Shown one piece after another: positions 22,030 to 47,274 of a DNA stretch of 64,000 nucleotides (its first letter is position 1; the number at the start of each line of letters is the position of its first letter). The stretch comes from Mastigias papua (lineage: Eukaryota > Cnidaria > Scyphozoa > Rhizostomeae > Mastigiidae): contig OZ025278.1 in NCBI GenBank assembly GCA_964019165.1, positions 8,050,028 through 8,114,027 on the forward strand, given 5' to 3'. The notes below the pieces were generated by a model that saw only the letters and a list, made by a program, of their open reading frames with translations, had not been told where the DNA came from and did no database searches. A program made the translations under genes and the position numbers.

Positions 22030-22294
22030 GTCACTCTATGGGTGAGTGGCCACGTGGTTAGAGCGCTTAACTGCCGTGCGAAGCATCGATGGTTCGAGAC
22101 GAACCCTCGGATCAAAGAAAGGATGCTCGCTCACTGGTCACCCAGCAGCAAATGGGTACTTGGTGGCAACACTGGGGAAATTAAAGGAGGCGAGGAAAGG
22201 ACCTGGCCACCCTACCTCACTAGGCCGGCGGCTGAGGATAAGTGTCTCTCTAACGGGCACTCGCCCGACGTACGGAATCGTACACGGGACTCAT
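22030..22294 (+). mobile_element. tRNA-derived SINE, copy 2, same monomer position
   Basis: The same 265-bp SINE with the same CTAGA flanks and the same insertion point within the monomer as the copy at 6920, about six differences between the two. Flanking monomers also match, so this copy arose by duplication of a satellite segment and not by a second transposition. Confidence 0.87.
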
Positions 22295-24379: not shown

Positions 24380-24820
24380 ATGGATACGGTCGAAAACAAA
24401 TACATCTATGCGATTCGAATTTTTCTTACAAATACTTGGAGAAGTAATGATGAAGATATCACCGAATTGTATGAAGGTGCAAACTCTATAATACAGTCAC
24501 ATGCGGATTTATTTCATTCTATAGTGTCAGATATTACAGCTACTAATCTTCGCGAACGATATTATAATGTTACAGAGGCCTGTACAGTTAACGAAGGATT
24601 CAACTGGGGATGATTGTGTGCAATATATGCAATATCCATACATTTGCTGCAACATTTCAGGGGAGATGTTGAAATAGAAGACAAGCTGATGTATTTTCAT
24701 ATTGCAAGAATAAAGCAAGCATTTGAACTACATGGTATGTTGTGGTATAACAATCACAGAAAGAATAAAAACAGAAATATTATATATTGTTTACTACATG
24801 CAATTCTACCATTCCTCTAA
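24380..24820 (+). pseudogene. Bcl-2-family-like gene broken by an in-frame TGA in BH1
   Basis: Bcl-2 proteins regulate apoptosis at mitochondrial membranes; related genes occur in animals and in several large DNA viruses. From ATG 24380 a single frame runs 147 codons to TAA 24820 with one internal stop, TGA at 24611-24613. Before it the peptide reads LRERYYNVTEA then VNEGFNWG, matching the helix-to-BH1 pattern that ends NWGR in the family; the TGA sits exactly at the Arg codon. An upstream stretch LYEGANSII then HADLF resembles BH3 and its following helix. After the stop the frame continues with a hydrophobic helix (CAIYAISIHLLQHF), a weak BH2-like HGMLW and a hydrophobic C-terminus. The length suits a small, virus-like Bcl-2. 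CGA to TGA is one transition. Assignment is by motif pattern only; origin (host or viral) is undecided. Confidence 0.6.
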
Positions 24821-24863: not shown

Positions 24864-24994
24864 ACTGGTCGAACATGTAAAACGGCAGAGATAAAACTGG
24901 TTGATCATGTAAAACGGCAGAGATAAAACTGGTTGAACATGTAAAACGGTAGAGATGGAACTGGTTGAACATGTAAAATGGCAGAGATAAATTG
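24864..24994 (+). repeat. 32-bp tandem repeat, four copies
   Basis: Units beginning ACTGG start at 24864, 24896, 24928 and 24960, exactly 32 bp apart, with core AACATGTAAAACGGCAGAG and a few changes. A fifth ACTGG follows at 24995. The repeat fills the gap between the Bcl-2-like pseudogene and the next ORF and could be a regulatory or simply unstable sequence. Confidence 0.9.
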
Positions 24995-25036: not shown

Positions 25037-25618
25037 ATGAATTACAAACAGTTTCTATATATACATGGTAAACAACTTAGACTCTATCATATTACAACCA
25101 TGAACAACTCAAAGATGGTATCTCTGAGTGTAAATCACTACTCTACACTTTTCACTGTTAAACCTATAGCAGATGATGGTTCTACATGGCTTCTGTCTGT
25201 AAAAGATCCATTTCGCAAGAACACATCACCCTCAATTCAACTGGAAAGAAGAGGTCTAGAGATGTTGCTATCCTCGCTAGATATTATTGAAGACAAAGGC
25301 AATGAGATGTATGTATATGGAAAACCGATAAATGTCTTCTTTAAAAACGTAAAAGAAGCTACTTACAATGGTAACCGATATTCTTTTGCAGAGACTAGCG
25401 GTGGTATATTAAAGCGAATTAAGCCAGGCAGTAATATTCGTCAGTCATTTCAATTGATGCAGCGTGAAAATGGTCCTCTACGACTGCAGATTATAATACA
25501 AGAATGGAAAGATAACAAGTGCATAAGCCGAATGAAACTTGAAGAAGGACTAGTACGAAAACTTTTAGCAGATAGACATGAGTTTTTAGATAAACTTCAT
25601 AGATATTCAGTACTTTAA
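25037..25618 (+). CDS. Unrecognised 193-aa protein, possible tandem PC4-like fold
   Basis: An intronless frame from ATG 25037 (MNYKQFLYIHG) to TAA 25618. The frame is open upstream from about 24992, but no earlier ATG exists. I do not recognise the family. Two segments have the same shape: several short beta-like strands followed by an amphipathic helix, at about residues 28-85 (ending IQLERRGLEMLLSSLDII) and 145-190 (LRLQIIIQEW, then KLEEGLVRKLLADRHEF). This strand-strand-helix pattern resembles PC4-type single-stranded-DNA-binding domains, an inference from pattern only. It lies 216 bp after the Bcl-2-like relic and 135 bp before a similar ORF on the same strand, which suggests one compact block. 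No signal peptide or membrane segment is seen. It could also be an orphan gene of a mobile element or an integrated virus. Confidence 0.55.
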   Translation: MNYKQFLYIHGKQLRLYHITTMNNSKMVSLSVNHYSTLFTVKPIADDGSTWLLSVKDPFRKNTSPSIQLERRGLEMLLSSLDIIEDKGNEMYVYGKPINVFFKNVKEATYNGNRYSFAETSGGILKRIKPGSNIRQSFQLMQRENGPLRLQIIIQEWKDNKCISRMKLEEGLVRKLLADRHEFLDKLHRYSVL

Positions 25619-25753: not shown

Positions 25754-26224
25754 ATGAAAAAATACTCATTCAATATTAAAGATCATGCTGTAATACTGGA
25801 GAAAAACCCAAAAAAGCAACAATGGAAATTCTCATATTATAAACAATCTGACACTGACAAAGAGAAAAATTTTGTATACATGCAGAGCAAAGATTTAAGA
25901 GCAGCCCTATTACTTGCAAAAGATGTAATCAAAAAAGATTCCATTGGCGTAACAAATATTCAAAATAAGTTTGCCTATAAATTAGCAGAAAGCTTTGATA
26001 TGTCAATATGCACGCAAGAACTAAAATACATCTATGATGATGAACATATAGTAACAGTCGGATTATTAATACATCAACCCGAAGATAACAATGAACACGA
26101 GTGGGCACTAAGGATTACTCACATGCTTGAGTATGATGTCAAAAGAGAGATAGACTTAAACGTAGCAATATTGAAAACATTATTAGAAGAATTAGACAAA
26201 ATTAACTTTATAGATATGTTATAA
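25754..26224 (+). CDS. Unrecognised 156-aa protein, shape like its upstream neighbour
   Basis: ATG 25754 (MKKYSFNIKDHAVILEK) to TAA 26224, intronless and lysine-rich. Not recognised. As in the preceding ORF there are two strand-rich parts each ending in a helix: about residues 5-62 (FVYMQSKDLRAALLLAKDVI) and 85-154 (WALRITHML, then LNVAILKTLLEELDKI). Shared layout, shared strand and close spacing suggest a diverged tandem duplicate, but sequence identity is low and this is inference. The 5' gap contains a TATATATATATATTACA run at about 25685 that could serve as a TATA element. Confidence 0.55.
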   Translation: MKKYSFNIKDHAVILEKNPKKQQWKFSYYKQSDTDKEKNFVYMQSKDLRAALLLAKDVIKKDSIGVTNIQNKFAYKLAESFDMSICTQELKYIYDDEHIVTVGLLIHQPEDNNEHEWALRITHMLEYDVKREIDLNVAILKTLLEELDKINFIDML

Positions 26225-26574: not shown

Positions 26575-26599
26575 GCAGCGCTGGCAGAGCCAGCGCTGC
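26575..26599. repeat. Perfect GC-rich hairpin, 11-bp arms
   Basis: GCAGCGCTGGC, loop AGA, GCCAGCGCTGC: a perfect inverted repeat and the most GC-rich spot in an AT-rich neighbourhood. Just before it, ATGAGCCTNTATTCCA is repeated directly at 26529 and 26549. No gene abuts it. It could be a cruciform or an element end; its function is unknown. Confidence 0.9.
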
Positions 26600-26835: not shown

Positions 26836-26942
26836 CTACTTTTGCACACATACATTTTTTTGACCCATCACATTGCTTCAAACAAGATTGTTTGAAGGGA
26901 GGGGATTCTATAGCTCGTTTATAGTGTAAATCATGGCTTGTT

Positions 26943-29342: not shown

Positions 29343-29919
29343 TTATTGTACCACTCCATTACTATCATAAGTCTTTGGTTCTGGCATTTGAAAAGGCAAG
29401 CATATTGTAACACATCCCGATCGAGCAATCTGTAATGATGGAAAATACCTCCATTTATCTTCAATTTCATCGTAATATTCGGCAGTCTCTATTAGTGACA
29501 TATATATATTTATGCCACTAATCGCTATAATACGTCCAAAGAAAATAGCAGTAGATACGCCACCACGACAGTTTTGCAACCTGGCACAAGGCGACCATGC
29601 ATTAAGAAATGGACTAAACCTCTCTACCAGATCGATCGAACCACGAGCACTATTGACACCACCAATGACATATATAAATCCAGATAATGTAGATGCACCA
29701 AAATCACTTCTTGGCGTTATCATTGGAGTATCTTGGACCCACTTGTCATTACTTATTATATAATGTTCAACACTATTGAGATCGCCAGATTCGTCATCAA
29801 ATCCACCAAGCGCATATAAATTTCCATTCATTGAAACAAGGTTGAATCTTCTACGACGGTTATTCATCTTCTCCAGCTGAGTCCACGTGTTATTTTCAGG
29901 ATCAAAGCGCTCTAGGTAC
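29343..29919 (-). CDS. Kelch-repeat protein, final exon (KLHL-type)
   Basis: This exon encodes the C-terminal kelch beta-propeller part of what is probably a BTB-kelch substrate adaptor for a cullin-3 ubiquitin ligase (role from the family, not shown here). About three and a half repeats are visible, with LYALGGF, IYVIGGV and IIAISGI as the Gly-Gly (one Ser-Gly) strands, and repeated Trp-bearing segments (NTWTQLEKM, DKWVQDTPM, NAWSPCARL, DKWRYFPSL). The exon start is set by a pyrimidine-rich acceptor ending TTCCCCTTAG at 29920, giving a split codon; the ATG a few codons earlier lies in the intron. The stop follows NGVVQ. BTB and BACK exons should lie at higher coordinates on this strand, but I could not find them; transposon relics fill that side. 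Confidence 0.85.
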
Positions 29920-30766
29920 CTAAGGGGAAGCAAATTTACAAAAAAAAATTGACAGGGATCTCAAATATGAAATTTATTCATAGAAATAGACATAATCATT
30001 GCACATTTCGTGTTCCTAAAATATTGCAATGCGTTATAACAATTGAAAGAGTACTATCAGTACACCAAAAGTGACATGATATATCAATGGACAGACTCTC
30101 TTTATTGGAGTTTCCAAAAGTCCTTCCAACACCCAATGAATAATCCAGTTTATATGACATTAGCAAATGTCTTGTTAAATTTGACGACTAGTGATCCCCT
30201 CCCCGCAAAACAATTTTGAAGTGAAAGCTTATTGATTGGGTGCTATTTGAGAGTGGCTCAATATGTTTGCTGCGAGTAGTCGCTCATTAATTCAATATTG
30301 TTCTGAGGGGGGAGTGGGGTATTTGAGAAGTTATCTAAGAGTTCCAAGACTTTCCACAGGGATTTTCTAAGGGAGCTCTTTTAGGAGGCAGAAATCTGAG
30401 AATTAAATCTGTTATACAGTAAGGTTCTCAATGTTGAAGATCTCATTGGTCATAAAGAAATTTTGATATTGTGTGAGGTAAGGGGTCAACTAAGGGGCTG
30501 TAGTGCTGTTCTAGTGTTCTTAGATAGTAAAGATGATTCTAAGAAAATGCAGTACTTTTCCAATCTAAATAAGGATGGAAGAAGCTGATACAGAGTGTAA
30601 ATTTTGCAATATAAATTTTGGAGATTAGATCTTGGCCGCTGATAACCGCCATTTTTATCAAGGGGTTCCCAGTACTTTGGATTAGGGTGTATAGTGGTCA
30701 GAAATTAGCCAAGAAACTGGAATCAAGATAATATTGGTGATACTCTAATCAATACGAATTCTTTGC
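29920..30766. other. Probable intron of the kelch gene; no coding sequence seen
   Basis: Follows the acceptor on the minus strand. It contains G- and C-rich short runs (GAGGGGGGAGTGGGG) and a diverged stretch resembling the Tc1-type MITE body, but no frame with a recognisable domain. Confidence 0.45.
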
Positions 30767-36520: not shown

Positions 36521-38339
36521 ATGAAAAACAAGCAAATAAAAAGAGATATAAAATATGATTCAAGTAACATTAGCGATAACTACACAGTTGCAGTATCTAA
36601 TAGGTTTGAAATTCTGGAAAACGAGAATATATCAGAGAAAGCTCCAAATGAATTATGGGAAGACATTAAAGAGACCATACTGTCAGAAGCAGAAAATCGT
36701 ATTCCAAAGAAAAATATAGTGAAAAGAAGTAAATGGTTATCTGAAGAAACAATTAAAACCGCTGAGAAGAGAAACCTGACTAAATGTAATAAAAAGTGGG
36801 ATGAATTCAAAACATTAAATGCAGAATTTCAACGACAAGCAAGGAAAGACAAGGAATCATTCATCATTAAGGAGTATGAAGAAGTAGAAGATAATATGAA
36901 AAAAGGAAAAACAAAAGAAGTATACAAAACCATCAAACATTTTACAAGACAACTTAGTCCAAAAGTAGGAGTAATCAAAGATGAACAAGGAGATAATCTC
37001 ACTGAGGAAAGAGACATAAAAAACAGGTGGAAAGAATATGTAGAAAATCTTTATAAGAAAAATAACCAAATAAAAGATAATTTCACAAAATCACTCACAC
37101 TAGAAAATGAGCCCAATATTTTAGAAGAGGAAGTAAGGCTAGCACTGAAGAAACTACCAAACAATAAATCACCCGAGTTAGACAATATTCCAATAGAGCT
37201 TCTTAAAACAGCTGGAGAGGATAAACTAATCACTACACTTTGCAGGAAAATATGGGATACTGGCGAGTGGCCTACAGACAGGAAGAGATCAATATATATC
37301 CCACTGCCAAAGAAAGGAGACATATGCATATGTTCAAACAATCGTACCATCACATTAATCTCACATACTAGTAAAATACTACTAAAGATTATACAAAACA
37401 GAATTGAACCATACATGGAAAGAGAAATAGTTAATGAGCAAGCAGGGTTTAGAAAAGGAAGAGGCACTAGGGATCATATTAACAATATCAGATGGATACA
37501 AGAAAAATGTCATGAATTTGGACAACCTTTATACTTATGTTTCATAGATTATAGCAAAGCATTTGACTGTGTAGATCATGAAAAGCCATGGCTAACACTA
37601 CAGGAAATTGGAATTCCAGAACATTTAATTAACATATTGTGCAGTTTGTATAACAGACAAGAGGCTACTGTAAGAACAGACAAGGGTAACACAGAATGGT
37701 TTAATATTGGCAAGGGAGTAAAGCAAGAGTGCATCTTATCACCATTCTTGTTTAATATGTACACTGAGATAATCATGCGAAAAGCACTTGATAGTACAGA
37801 AACAGGGATCAAAATTGGAGGACAAGTAATTGACAATATGCGATATGCTGATGACACCACATCGGTGGAAGACACTGAACATGGGATGAAAAACTAATAA
37901 AAAGAGTAAAAGATGAAAGTGGGAAGGCTGGACTATATCTAAACATAAAAAAGACAAAGCTTGTGACAACAGATGATATAACAGAATTAAAATTGATGAT
38001 GAATATATAGAAATAGTGGAAAGCTTCATATTCTTAGGCAGCCAAATAACAAGAAATGGAGGCAGCGATAGTGAAATAAGAAGGAGGATAGGAATGACCC
38101 GAACAACAATGAAAAAGTTAGCACACGTGATAAAGAACTATGATTTAACTCTGCGCACGAAAATTAGACCAGTAAACACCTTAATATTTTCTGCTTTTTT
38201 GTATGGATGTGAGAGCTGGACTATAAGAAAACAACAACGAAAAAAGATAGATGCTTTAGAGCTCTGGTGTTGGAGAAAACTATTAAAAATTTCATGGATA
38301 GATAAAATTCGTGAAAAGTCTATTGGTACTGCAGAATTT
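36521..38339 (+). pseudogene. LINE reverse transcriptase, frameshifted near its end
   Basis: A 458-codon frame (36521-37897) carries the RT core in order: IYIPLPKKGD, NEQAGFRKGRGTRDHI, CFIDYSKAFDCVDH (motif A with Asp), GVKQECILSPFLFN and MRYADDT (motif C). Both catalytic Asp positions are kept. The frame is lost at about 37897. Coding potential continues in other frames through ESFIFLGSQITRNGG and TLIFSAFLYGCESWTI to the insertion at 38340. Upstream joins to the deleted endonuclease. Confidence 0.88.
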
Positions 38340-44412: not shown

Positions 44413-47274
44413 ATGCGCTCTTGTAAGAGAAATGGTCTCAAAATAGCGTTTTTGAATATAGTCTCCCTAAGAAAACATAGAAGGGAGCTCGAAATCGTGC
44501 TCAAGGATAATGACATTGATATCATTGGCCTAAGTGAAACTCGTTTAGATGAAACAGTTAGAGACTCCGATGTAAACATTAATGGCTACAATATTTATAG
44601 AAATGACCGAAATACTAACGGCGGAGGAGTGGCCATTTACGTGAAAGAAAGCTTGTCAGAACCAACTGTTAAGATCAAAAGTGACAAGTTAGAGCTTGTT
44701 GCACTTGAATTCACACCAAATCATGCCAAACCTTTTCTCGTTATGTGCTGGTACCGTCCTCCAACCTCAGGAGTGGACGATGCTTCTTTCGAAAATCTAA
44801 GGGATATATTGAGGAACGTTGACAAAGAGGAAAAGGAGATGATTCTTATTGGTGATACCAACTGTGACTTTAAAAACAATCAAAACGCCAATGCCAAGAA
44901 ACTCAAAACTATTTATTCCGAGTTTCAGTTCACACAGTTAATAAATAAGTACACAAGGGTTGCTATTACGACAAACGAGCAAAACGAACAGAAAACCACA
45001 AAAACGCTAATAGACCATTTCTCAACAACGAGCCCCAGGTACATCTTAAGAGCAGATGTTTTACGGATTGGGATGGTTGACCACTACATGGTGTATTCAA
45101 TAAGAAAAATCAACGCTTGGAGACTCAAGAAGAAAAAGCCAAAAATTATTGAGTCTCGCAGCCTTAGCAGATATAATAAGGAACTATTTCGGAACGACCT
45201 ACGCCAGATTGACTGGTCTACCATCCTTGATCCACTCTCTGAAAATCCAAATGAGATGGCCTCCGCCTTTCAGGAGATTTTTGAGCTTATCTTGGATATG
45301 CATGCACCTCTTAAAAAAAGGAGAGTACGGGGCGAATTTGCACCTTGGCTAAATCAATCCATTAGAAACCTAATGAGGGAGAGGGATTTGGCAAAGAGGG
45401 CTGCTGAAAAATCTCCTGAGAAATGGAGCTTATATAAGCAACTCAGAAATAAAGTAACAAAAGAAATAAGGGTTGCTGTTCAGTCACATTACCACGGGTT
45501 AATCAATGAAAATAAGGACAACCCGAAAAAAATGTGGCAGACTATTAACAATGTATTAGATAGATCCTCGAAATCAACAATGCCTGCGAGTTTGGACATT
45601 GGGGGCAAAAAGCTAACCAAGGAAGGAGATATAGTAGAGGCATTGAATCACCATTTTGTTTCAGTTGGACCAAAGCTTGCGAGTAAAATTGAACAAAATG
45701 CTAATGATGATCCTCTTCAACATATTAATAATGAACCTACTACGATGAGGCTCACCCCGGTAGATGACAACTACGTACCTAAGGCCATTAAGCAACTAAA
45801 AAATGGCAAGGCACCAGGGCCTGATAAGATCCCCATAATTCTGATAAAGGACGCTGTGGATCTCATTTCTAAACCGTTGACACTGATTTTCAACTCTTCT
45901 TTATGGAAGGGTATTTTCCCTGATGTCTGGAAGTTGGCGAGAGTCACCCCTATTTTTAAATCAGGTTCTAAAAGCGAGGCTAACAACTATAGGCCTATCT
46001 CGGTGATCTCTGTATTCTCGAGGATTCTCGAAAGAATTGTGCATGATCAAGTTTATGAATACCTCAAGGTAAATAAAGTTCTAACAATGAGTCAATCAGC
46101 TTTTCAAAAACTTTGTTCGACAATAACACCATTGATTGATAGTACTGACTACTGGTATGAGAATATTGACCACAAGCAACTTAATTTGGCAATAATCCTC
46201 AATCTCAAAAAAGCTTTCGATACCGTTGACCATAAAATTCTTTTAGAAAAATTGAGGAAATACGGTATTCGAGAACTGTCTGGAGACTGGTTTGAATCAT
46301 ACCTCAAAAACAGAAGGCAGTACTGTGCAGCCAACGGTTATGAGTCAAGGCCTAGGACAGTTACATGTGGTATTCCCCAGGGTTCCTGTCTCGGTCCACT
46401 TCTCTTCATAATATACCTGAATGACTTTGAAAAATGTTTGAAAGTTTCTAAGGCTGGTATGTACGCTGATGATACTCACGTGACCGTAACATCTATGAAT
46501 GTTGAAGAACTAGTTCATAAGGCTCAAGAGGAATTGACCCAAATCTCTGAATATATGAGGTTAAATAAATTAAGTGCCAATCCTCAAAAAACGGAGTATA
46601 TGATAATTGGACACCCCCGTAGAACTAACAAAGTCGAGATACATGAAACATTGAGACTGAATGGTGCCGATATAAAACGGGTGAAAAAGACAAAATCACT
46701 TGGAGTTATTGTAGACGAAGGGCTTAACTGGGAAGAACAATTCAAAACTATCAAAGGGAAAGTTTCTGGAGGTCTTACATCTTTAAAAAAGTTGAAAAAT
46801 ATCCTCCCACAATCTCAGCTAAGCAACGTATATCGTGCTCTTGTAGAAAGTCACATGCGATATGCAGATGTTATCTGGGGTAGCCTCACACATTCAAAAA
46901 AGGAATCGCTGCAACGTCTTCAAGACAGGGCCTTCTTTATAATCGAAACAGCTAGGATTAAAGATAAATGGTCAAATAATCTCCTCAGTGCTGAGCAACT
47001 TGTTATGTTTGATCGTGCCGTTATGGCTTATAAGATCATGAATAGACTCTGCCCTGAAAACCTTTGGAACAAATTTCAACGAAGATCCCATTATTCCAAC
47101 TATAACACACGCTTCTGCAGAGATCTTCAGATTCCGAGGTACAATCTGGAGTACGCCAAAAAAGGATTTTCGTATTCAGCTCTTAAGGTCTGGAATGAAA
47201 TCCCAATAAGTATCAGGGAGCTTCCTACCTTGTGCCGATTCAAAAAACAACTGAAAATGCATTTGATGAGCTGA
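44413..47274 (+). CDS. LINE ORF2: endonuclease and reverse transcriptase (motif A Asp changed)
   Basis: An intact 953-codon frame. N-terminal endonuclease (about residues 8-230): LKIAFLNIVSLRKH, IIGLSETRLD, GGVAIYVKE, MILIGDTNCDF and LIDHFSTTSP. The reverse transcriptase runs from about residue 480: ARVTPIFKSGSKSEANNYRPI, SQSAFQKLCSTITPLID, GIPQGSCLGPLLFIIYLNDF and MYADDTHVT (Asp 686 and 687). The motif A segment reads AIILNLKKAFDTVDH: Asn 597 replaces the catalytic Asp of the usual LDLKKAFD. The C-terminus (LYRALVESHMRY-type helices, WNEIPISIREL) fits CR1/L2. One substitution should therefore kill reverse transcription though the frame is otherwise full-length. Confidence 0.92.
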   Translation: MRSCKRNGLKIAFLNIVSLRKHRRELEIVLKDNDIDIIGLSETRLDETVRDSDVNINGYNIYRNDRNTNGGGVAIYVKESLSEPTVKIKSDKLELVALEFTPNHAKPFLVMCWYRPPTSGVDDASFENLRDILRNVDKEEKEMILIGDTNCDFKNNQNANAKKLKTIYSEFQFTQLINKYTRVAITTNEQNEQKTTKTLIDHFSTTSPRYILRADVLRIGMVDHYMVYSIRKINAWRLKKKKPKIIESRSLSRYNKELFRNDLRQIDWSTILDPLSENPNEMASAFQEIFELILDMHAPLKKRRVRGEFAPWLNQSIRNLMRERDLAKRAAEKSPEKWSLYKQLRNKVTKEIRVAVQSHYHGLINENKDNPKKMWQTINNVLDRSSKSTMPASLDIGGKKLTKEGDIVEALNHHFVSVGPKLASKIEQNANDDPLQHINNEPTTMRLTPVDDNYVPKAIKQLKNGKAPGPDKIPIILIKDAVDLISKPLTLIFNSSLWKGIFPDVWKLARVTPIFKSGSKSEANNYRPISVISVFSRILERIVHDQVYEYLKVNKVLTMSQSAFQKLCSTITPLIDSTDYWYENIDHKQLNLAIILNLKKAFDTVDHKILLEKLRKYGIRELSGDWFESYLKNRRQYCAANGYESRPRTVTCGIPQGSCLGPLLFIIYLNDFEKCLKVSKAGMYADDTHVTVTSMNVEELVHKAQEELTQISEYMRLNKLSANPQKTEYMIIGHPRRTNKVEIHETLRLNGADIKRVKKTKSLGVIVDEGLNWEEQFKTIKGKVSGGLTSLKKLKNILPQSQLSNVYRALVESHMRYADVIWGSLTHSKKESLQRLQDRAFFIIETARIKDKWSNNLLSAEQLVMFDRAVMAYKIMNRLCPENLWNKFQRRSHYSNYNTRFCRDLQIPRYNLEYAKKGFSYSALKVWNEIPISIRELPTLCRFKKQLKMHLMS

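What the first reader, a model, noticed from the sequence alone, without database searches (positions are those of the whole stretch)
24380..24820. Bcl-2-like gene whose BH1 arginine codon is a TGA stop
The frame reads the helix-BH1 pattern up to NWG, where the family has Arg, and the Arg position is TGA (24611-24613). The same frame then stays open for 69 more codons with suitable helices. One C-to-T change at a CpG would explain it. A small single-exon Bcl-2 next to two unknown AT-rich ORFs recalls cargo of large DNA viruses or virus-like transposons.
Basis: partly seen in the sequence, partly recalled or inferred. Interest (0 to 1): 0.75.

Follow-up and report, generated by a model that had tools for sequence, protein, structure and literature searches.

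The report
Broken Bcl-2 cargo of a Maverick
This stretch of an animal genome appears to hold a decayed cell-survival (Bcl-2-like) gene that was brought in by a virus-like mobile element, and younger elements in the same genome still carry an unbroken version of that gene.

Summary
A frame at 24380-24817 is cut by TGA (24611-24613) directly after FNWG. Pfam recognises neither half as Bcl-2. Bcl-2 sequences of the same genome do recognise the first half: it ranks first in four of four profile searches of 1487 six-frame window segments, E 5.1e-4 with the widest profile and 0.026 to 1.1 with the others. The second half is unsupported.

The own genome (346.8 Mb) holds dispersed, open 172-173 aa Bcl-2 frames. 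They lie in Maverick/Polinton elements: an A32-like ATPase and an rve+chromo integrase beside one copy, and PolB about 13.2 kb away in 5 of 6 subfamily A copies. In these elements another gene follows Bcl-2. Window ORF2 (25100-25618) matches it in the same order and strand, E 1.1e-4 with one of two profiles. The block is best read as a diverged, partial Maverick cargo remnant.

The TGA is probably ordinary decay: two other decayed copies have a stop at the same BH1 arginine, and CpG sites in decayed copies change about five times as often as other C/G sites. The real interest is Mavericks carrying Bcl-2 with PUR-like genes.

The parts
24380..24610 (+). ORF1, first part: Bcl-2-like, helix 1 to BH1 NWG
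   Evidence: Profile of 12 genome Bcl-2 proteins: only segment under E 0.1 among 1487, E 5.1e-4; 1 of 5000 shuffles as high
24611..24613 (+). TGA stop at the BH1 arginine position
   Evidence: same position is a stop in L022 and L030
24614..24820 (+). ORF1, second part: 68 codons and stop; presumed rest of the Bcl-2-like gene
   Evidence: Position and open frame only; no profile or alignment support
24864..24991 (.). Four tandem copies of a 32-bp unit between ORF1 and ORF2
25100..25618 (+). ORF2, 172 aa: relative of the gene that follows Bcl-2 in the Mavericks; PUR-like at best
   Evidence: Eight-row profile E 1.1e-4 among 1487 segments, next 4.3; a six-row profile only E 1.7, rank 2; single copy in the genome
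25754..26224 (+). ORF3, 156 aa: predicted double PUR-like fold

Best explanation
The block from 24224 to about 26530 is a diverged, partial and decaying cargo segment of a Maverick/Polinton, the virus-like DNA transposon related to adintoviruses. It carried a single-exon Bcl-2-like gene followed by two genes for PUR-like, probably nucleic-acid-binding, proteins. Shown here: similarity of ORF1's first half and of ORF2 to two neighbouring genes of Mavericks in this genome, in the same order and strand; a stop at the BH1 arginine; recurrent loss of that arginine in other decayed copies, with CpG-biased decay. Inferred: in a live element the Bcl-2 protein keeps the replicating cell alive by holding BH3 death ligands in its BH1-BH3 groove, and the PUR-like proteins bind single-stranded DNA or RNA. 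This copy ends before the groove helix and is most likely inactive.
For: Four profile searches of 1487 window segments rank ORF1's first half first. ORF2 is the only segment under E 1 with an eight-row profile of the element gene after Bcl-2 and a later relative, profile alignment P 9.3e-5 over 132 columns. The elements have an A32-like ATPase and an rve+chromo integrase and PolB in 5 of 6 subfamily A copies. In subfamily A the gene after Bcl-2 stands in the same order as ORF2 after ORF1. ORF3's model is closest to Pur-alpha.
Against: Pfam's Bcl-2 model does not match either half even at E 10; the first half's best Pfam match is SHCBP_N, E 0.0012, under its cut-off. Narrower Bcl-2 profiles give only E 0.026, 0.15 and 1.1. 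Single-sequence comparisons are weak in both directions: element proteins against window segments give E 0.031 for ORF2 and 0.066 for the first half; window proteins against 3610 locus segments give no match below E 0.1. A six-row profile puts ORF2 at E 1.7, rank 2. The second half is unsupported. No element core gene was found nearby.
Confidence: 0.78

Rival explanations
1. ORF1 is not a Bcl-2 relative. NWG and the helical pattern are chance in an orphan frame, and only ORF2, if anything, links the block to Mavericks.
For: No Pfam Bcl-2 match; weak single-sequence scores; second half unsupported.
Against: First rank in four of four profile searches over 1487 segments, 1 of 5000 shuffles as high, and a neighbour that matches the neighbour of the element Bcl-2 gene.
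Confidence: 0.13
2. ORF2 and ORF3 have been kept by the host (domesticated) while ORF1 decayed.
For: ORF2 and ORF3 are long and open (runs of 172 or more codons in 2 of 2000 shuffles); ORF2 is single copy; block CpG o/e is 0.73 against 0.49 to 0.59 in the other parts of the window.
Against: No orthologue was available to test selection; open frames are also expected of a fairly recent insertion.
Confidence: 0.1
3. The TGA is not decay but a recoded or read-through codon that makes a short and a long product.
For: Two other copies have a stop at the same position.
Against: The subfamily A and B copies L013, L014, L017, L018, L019 and L020 have a sense codon there; copies with the stop carry other defects; CpG sites in decayed copies change far more often than other C/G sites.
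Confidence: 0.02

Closest known systems
Maverick/Polinton elements (adintovirus-like), subfamilies A and B of this genome
   Same: A Bcl-2-like gene followed on the same strand by a relative of ORF2
   Different: The window block lacks detectable ATPase, integrase and PolB, its proteins are too diverged for pairwise detection, and ORF3 has no detected counterpart
Viral Bcl-2 proteins of dsDNA viruses (review PMC11209288; one passage seen, term counts)
   Same: A small single-exon Bcl-2-like gene in a virus-like element; BH1 and following helix conserved in the intact copies
   Different: Carrier is a Maverick; that review contains none of the words polinton, maverick, adintovir or transposon; the window copy is broken
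Pur-alpha (PUR repeats I-II)
   Different: No Pfam PurA or PDB sequence match; the model has low confidence

Membership tests
Bcl-2 family (ORF1) | Match to the family profile | tested here: inconclusive
   Pfam PF00452: none for either half at E 10, and the window is not among the 26 matches in the genome. Profiles made from this genome: first rank four of four, E 5.1e-4 to 1.1
Bcl-2 family (ORF1) | BH1 motif NWGR at the start of helix 5 | tested here: not met
   NWG is present and aligned to BH1, but the arginine codon is a stop. So ORF1 is filed as a decayed relative, not as a working member
Bcl-2 family (ORF1) | BH2 and helices 5-8 after BH1 | tested here: inconclusive
   Second half: no support
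Bcl-2 family (ORF1) | Helical-bundle fold | not tested
Maverick/Polinton (carriers of the intact Bcl-2 copies) | rve-type integrase | tested here: met
   L025:2532-3608, rve E 3.9e-8, chromo 1.6e-5
Maverick/Polinton (carriers of the intact Bcl-2 copies) | A32-like packaging ATPase | tested here: met
   L025:1562-2257, Pox_A32 E 4.4e-8
Maverick/Polinton (carriers of the intact Bcl-2 copies) | Family B DNA polymerase | tested here: met
   PF03175 about 13.2 kb from 5 of 6 subfamily A copies; none listed within 100 kb of the 3 open B copies (91 of 149 candidates scored)
Maverick/Polinton (carriers of the intact Bcl-2 copies) | Capsid proteins, protease, terminal inverted repeats | not tested
   Only one frame beyond the integrase was scanned with Pfam (L025:3566-4540, no family); ends of the elements were not mapped
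Maverick/Polinton (window block itself) | Core element genes | tested here: not met
   No ATPase or integrase match in the window, L028 or L029; no listed PolB match within 2 Mb. Filed as a cargo remnant, not as an element
PUR family (ORF3) | Double PUR (beta-beta-beta-beta-alpha) fold | tested here: inconclusive

The most novel reading that the evidence does not exclude
Mavericks of this animal have kept a captured host Bcl-2 gene together with PUR-like nucleic-acid-binding genes as a standing cargo cassette, diversified over two subfamilies (A, B), a third lineage (L035, Bcl-2-like frame only seen) and the window's own lineage. These transposons then behave like viruses that hold off cell death while they replicate, and Bcl-2 capture is a lasting trait of Mavericks.
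Probability: 0.45. Interest if true: 0.65.

Novelty: new variant of a known kind. Interest (0 to 1): 0.5.

Why it matters
Viral Bcl-2 proteins are known from large dsDNA viruses. Finding them as cargo of Mavericks, with three copies 99.97-100% identical over 3.2 kb, suggests that an element usually treated as a transposon meets host cell death as a virus does, and gives a concrete handle on whether animal Mavericks are infectious. The broken window copy matters mainly as a marker of a separate lineage, and as an example of a stop that looks strange alone and ordinary beside its relatives.

Tried and rejected
Searches without result. Pfam on the two halves, ORF2 and ORF3 gave no Bcl-2 or PurA match. 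PHROGs gave nothing below E 0.2. PDB by sequence gave nothing meaningful (best E 0.023 to a periplasmic binding protein for ORF2). The 5.8-billion protein set returned only the window's own proteins for ORF2, ORF3 and the first half; the second half was not searched there. Viral contigs gave no relative of the two halves, ORF2, ORF3 or the element Bcl-2 alignment. In the own genome the first half found only itself and one chance-level match, E 4.15.

Literature. Nine searches listed no paper that the listing or the passages seen show to describe a Bcl-2 gene in a Polinton. The lists were partial in three: 15 of 23, 12 of 48, 12 of 4,687. Six papers hold both 'polinton' and 'bcl'; I looked into one of them, PMC6431247, by term search (9 passages). 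In PMC11071296 a term search for six terms found none, and in PMC11209288 one passage was seen. The paper that proposed adintoviruses is not held, so a report there cannot be excluded.

Not reached. Own-genome searches for ORF3, for the second half, for the block as DNA, and with the element gene after Bcl-2 did not complete, so their copy numbers are unknown. The organism was not identified; from recall the retroelement style suggests a cnidarian, which is only a guess.

Fetched from the unnamed own genome G000: L001, L002-L003, L004-L023, L024-L029, L030-L035. L024, L014 and L025 are neighbouring, overlapping stretches round one subfamily A copy and may together cover much of that element; they were searched as separate loci and never joined. 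Broken copies were compared in pieces or by alignments in which their stops stand; the genome search tool reads through stops by itself and counts them. Profiles were built for single proteins. The alignment tool printed a consensus of the cargo Bcl-2 protein by itself; that string was not used, but alignment A1 was searched in viral contigs. After the genome tool's note asked for no consensus on proviral stretches; the single-protein profiles and the alignment came after it, and a reader may judge them close to that line. One search used the listed 116-aa frame that ends at the stop with a region, so that longer relatives could be candidates without reading through; paper not held. Not answered because the machine was busy. 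The requests were repeated unchanged and answered. The request was repeated with an E-value limit of 1 instead of 10 and answered; the tool had asked for the same request, so this was a change of form. The requests were repeated unchanged without answer; those were not repeated. Some scripts only or partly waited between tries.

Full report
What is in the sequence. Two further open frames follow on the same strand, ORF2 (172 aa from ATG 25100, to 25618) and ORF3 (25754-26224, 156 aa). A 371-bp satellite array, interrupted near 22036-22294, runs from 1 to 24223, where the block begins. Openness alone is weak evidence for ORF1 (12 of 2000 shuffles of the block, but also 5 of 27 tiles of the window). 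It is stronger for ORF2 and ORF3: the longest run reaches 172 codons in 2 of 2000 shuffles and 156 in 6 of 2000.

First tests were negative. Pfam-A at E 10 gave no Bcl-2 match for either half; the first half's best match was SHCBP_N, E 0.0012, under its cut-off. PHROGs, PDB sequences, the large protein set and viral contigs gave no relative.

The own genome changed the picture. The window is G000:C15:8050028-8114027 of a genome of 346.8 Mb in 172 contigs. A PF00452 search gave 26 matches. Nine look like ordinary Bcl-2 genes or exons (L004-L012; not checked as genes). Nine are open frames of 172-173 aa at scattered places: by DNA alignment subfamily A is L013-L016, L018 and L019, and subfamily B is L017, L020 and L021. 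L014, L015 and L016 are 99.97-100% identical over 3.2 kb. Six more are decayed A- or B-like copies (L022, L030-L034; L033 is counted here although the search listed no stop inside its match). One (L035) belongs to a third lineage and one (L023) was not assigned. The window's ORF1 is not among the 26.

The carriers are Maverick/Polinton elements. Beside one A copy lie an A32-like ATPase (E 4.4e-8) and an integrase with rve (3.9e-8) and chromo (1.6e-5) domains; the B copy L017 has relatives of both at 87% and 82% identity (L027). A family B polymerase match lies about 13.2 kb from the Bcl-2 match in 5 of 6 A copies (91 of 149 candidates were scored and 80 matches listed). None listed lies within 100 kb of the three open B copies. 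L035 carries relatives of two A genes downstream of the integrase (32% and 41% identity) and a Bcl-2-like frame. In A copy L013 the order is a 197-aa frame, the Bcl-2 gene, a 174-aa frame, a 142-aa frame.

The window block matches two neighbours in that order. A profile of the 12 genome Bcl-2 proteins in which the script found an NWGR-type motif (L013-L021 and L004, L006, L007; L005, L008-L012, L022 and L023 gave none and were left out) was run against the 1487 six-frame window segments of 25 aa or more. ORF1's first half was the only hit below E 0.1: E 5.1e-4, 16.4 bits. Against shuffles, 1 of 5000 scored as high, and the alignment runs 66 residues with NWG on NWG; a seven-row element profile gave 9.0 bits, 3 of 5000. 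Core-region profiles also rank it first but weakly: E 0.026 (12 rows), 0.15 (3 element rows), 1.1 (9 host rows). In global alignments to six Bcl-2 proteins, 0 to 7 of 1000 shuffles did as well; in local ones 0 to 8 for five of them and 366 for L004. The second half has no support: 965 and 1453 of 5000 shuffles score as high, and 48 to 387 of 1000 in global alignments.

The stop. Seven A/B copies with a changed BH1 region or stops were compared (L021, L022, L030-L034). Two have a stop at the arginine (L022, L030), two read Gln there (L021, L033), one Leu (L032, with a stop at the Trp), one keeps Arg but has a stop at the Trp (L031), and in one the motif is scrambled (L034). L021 is otherwise an open frame. 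Six of them (L034 was not compared) show 20 of 56 CpG sites turned to TpG or CpA and 7 otherwise changed, against transitions at 56 of 845 other C or G sites; three intact copies show 3 of 38 and 7 of 448. The stop in the window is therefore best read as one more case of CpG-biased decay at a codon that is hit repeatedly once constraint is lost.

How it works. In a live element the cargo Bcl-2 most likely keeps the host cell alive during replication by binding BH3 ligands, as viral Bcl-2 proteins do (general knowledge; inferred here). The PUR-like proteins most likely bind single-stranded nucleic acid (inferred from a weak fold match). The window copy ends before the groove helix and is most likely inactive.

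Known and new. A 2024 review of viral Bcl-2 in dsDNA viruses contains none of the words polinton, maverick, adintovir or transposon (PMC11209288, term search). A review of giant transposons mentions a BCL2-like motif in Burro retroelements in the passages seen (PMC6431247). The searches named in Tried and rejected found no paper shown to describe a Bcl-2 gene in a Polinton, but the paper that proposed adintoviruses is not held. So the broken gene itself is ordinary decay, and the Maverick cassette of Bcl-2 with PUR-like genes is the part worth following.

Noticed in passing
window 1-24223, and 26841-26872: A 371-bp satellite array, interrupted near 22036-22294, ends where the block begins; a 32-bp stretch resembling the satellite unit (up to 87.5% identity, E 1.8e-4) recurs on the other side of the block.
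   Followed up: partly
window 26575-26599: A perfect GC-rich hairpin of two 11-base arms with a 3-base loop in an AT-rich surrounding, read by eye.
   Followed up: no
window 44413-47274 and 36521-37897: Long open frames that look like non-LTR retroelement proteins; named by eye, with relatives in L024 and L026.
   Followed up: no
L035:2306-2752: A Bcl-2-like frame of 149 codons (PF00452 E 0.057) beside relatives of Maverick genes: a third carrier lineage.
   Followed up: partly
G000, whole genome: 80 listed matches to DNA_pol_B_2 at E 0.001 or better, many in frames of 1300-1400 codons, so Mavericks or related elements seem abundant and partly intact here.
   Followed up: no
window 29343-29933: A 196-aa minus-strand frame that looks kelch-like; named by eye.
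   Followed up: no
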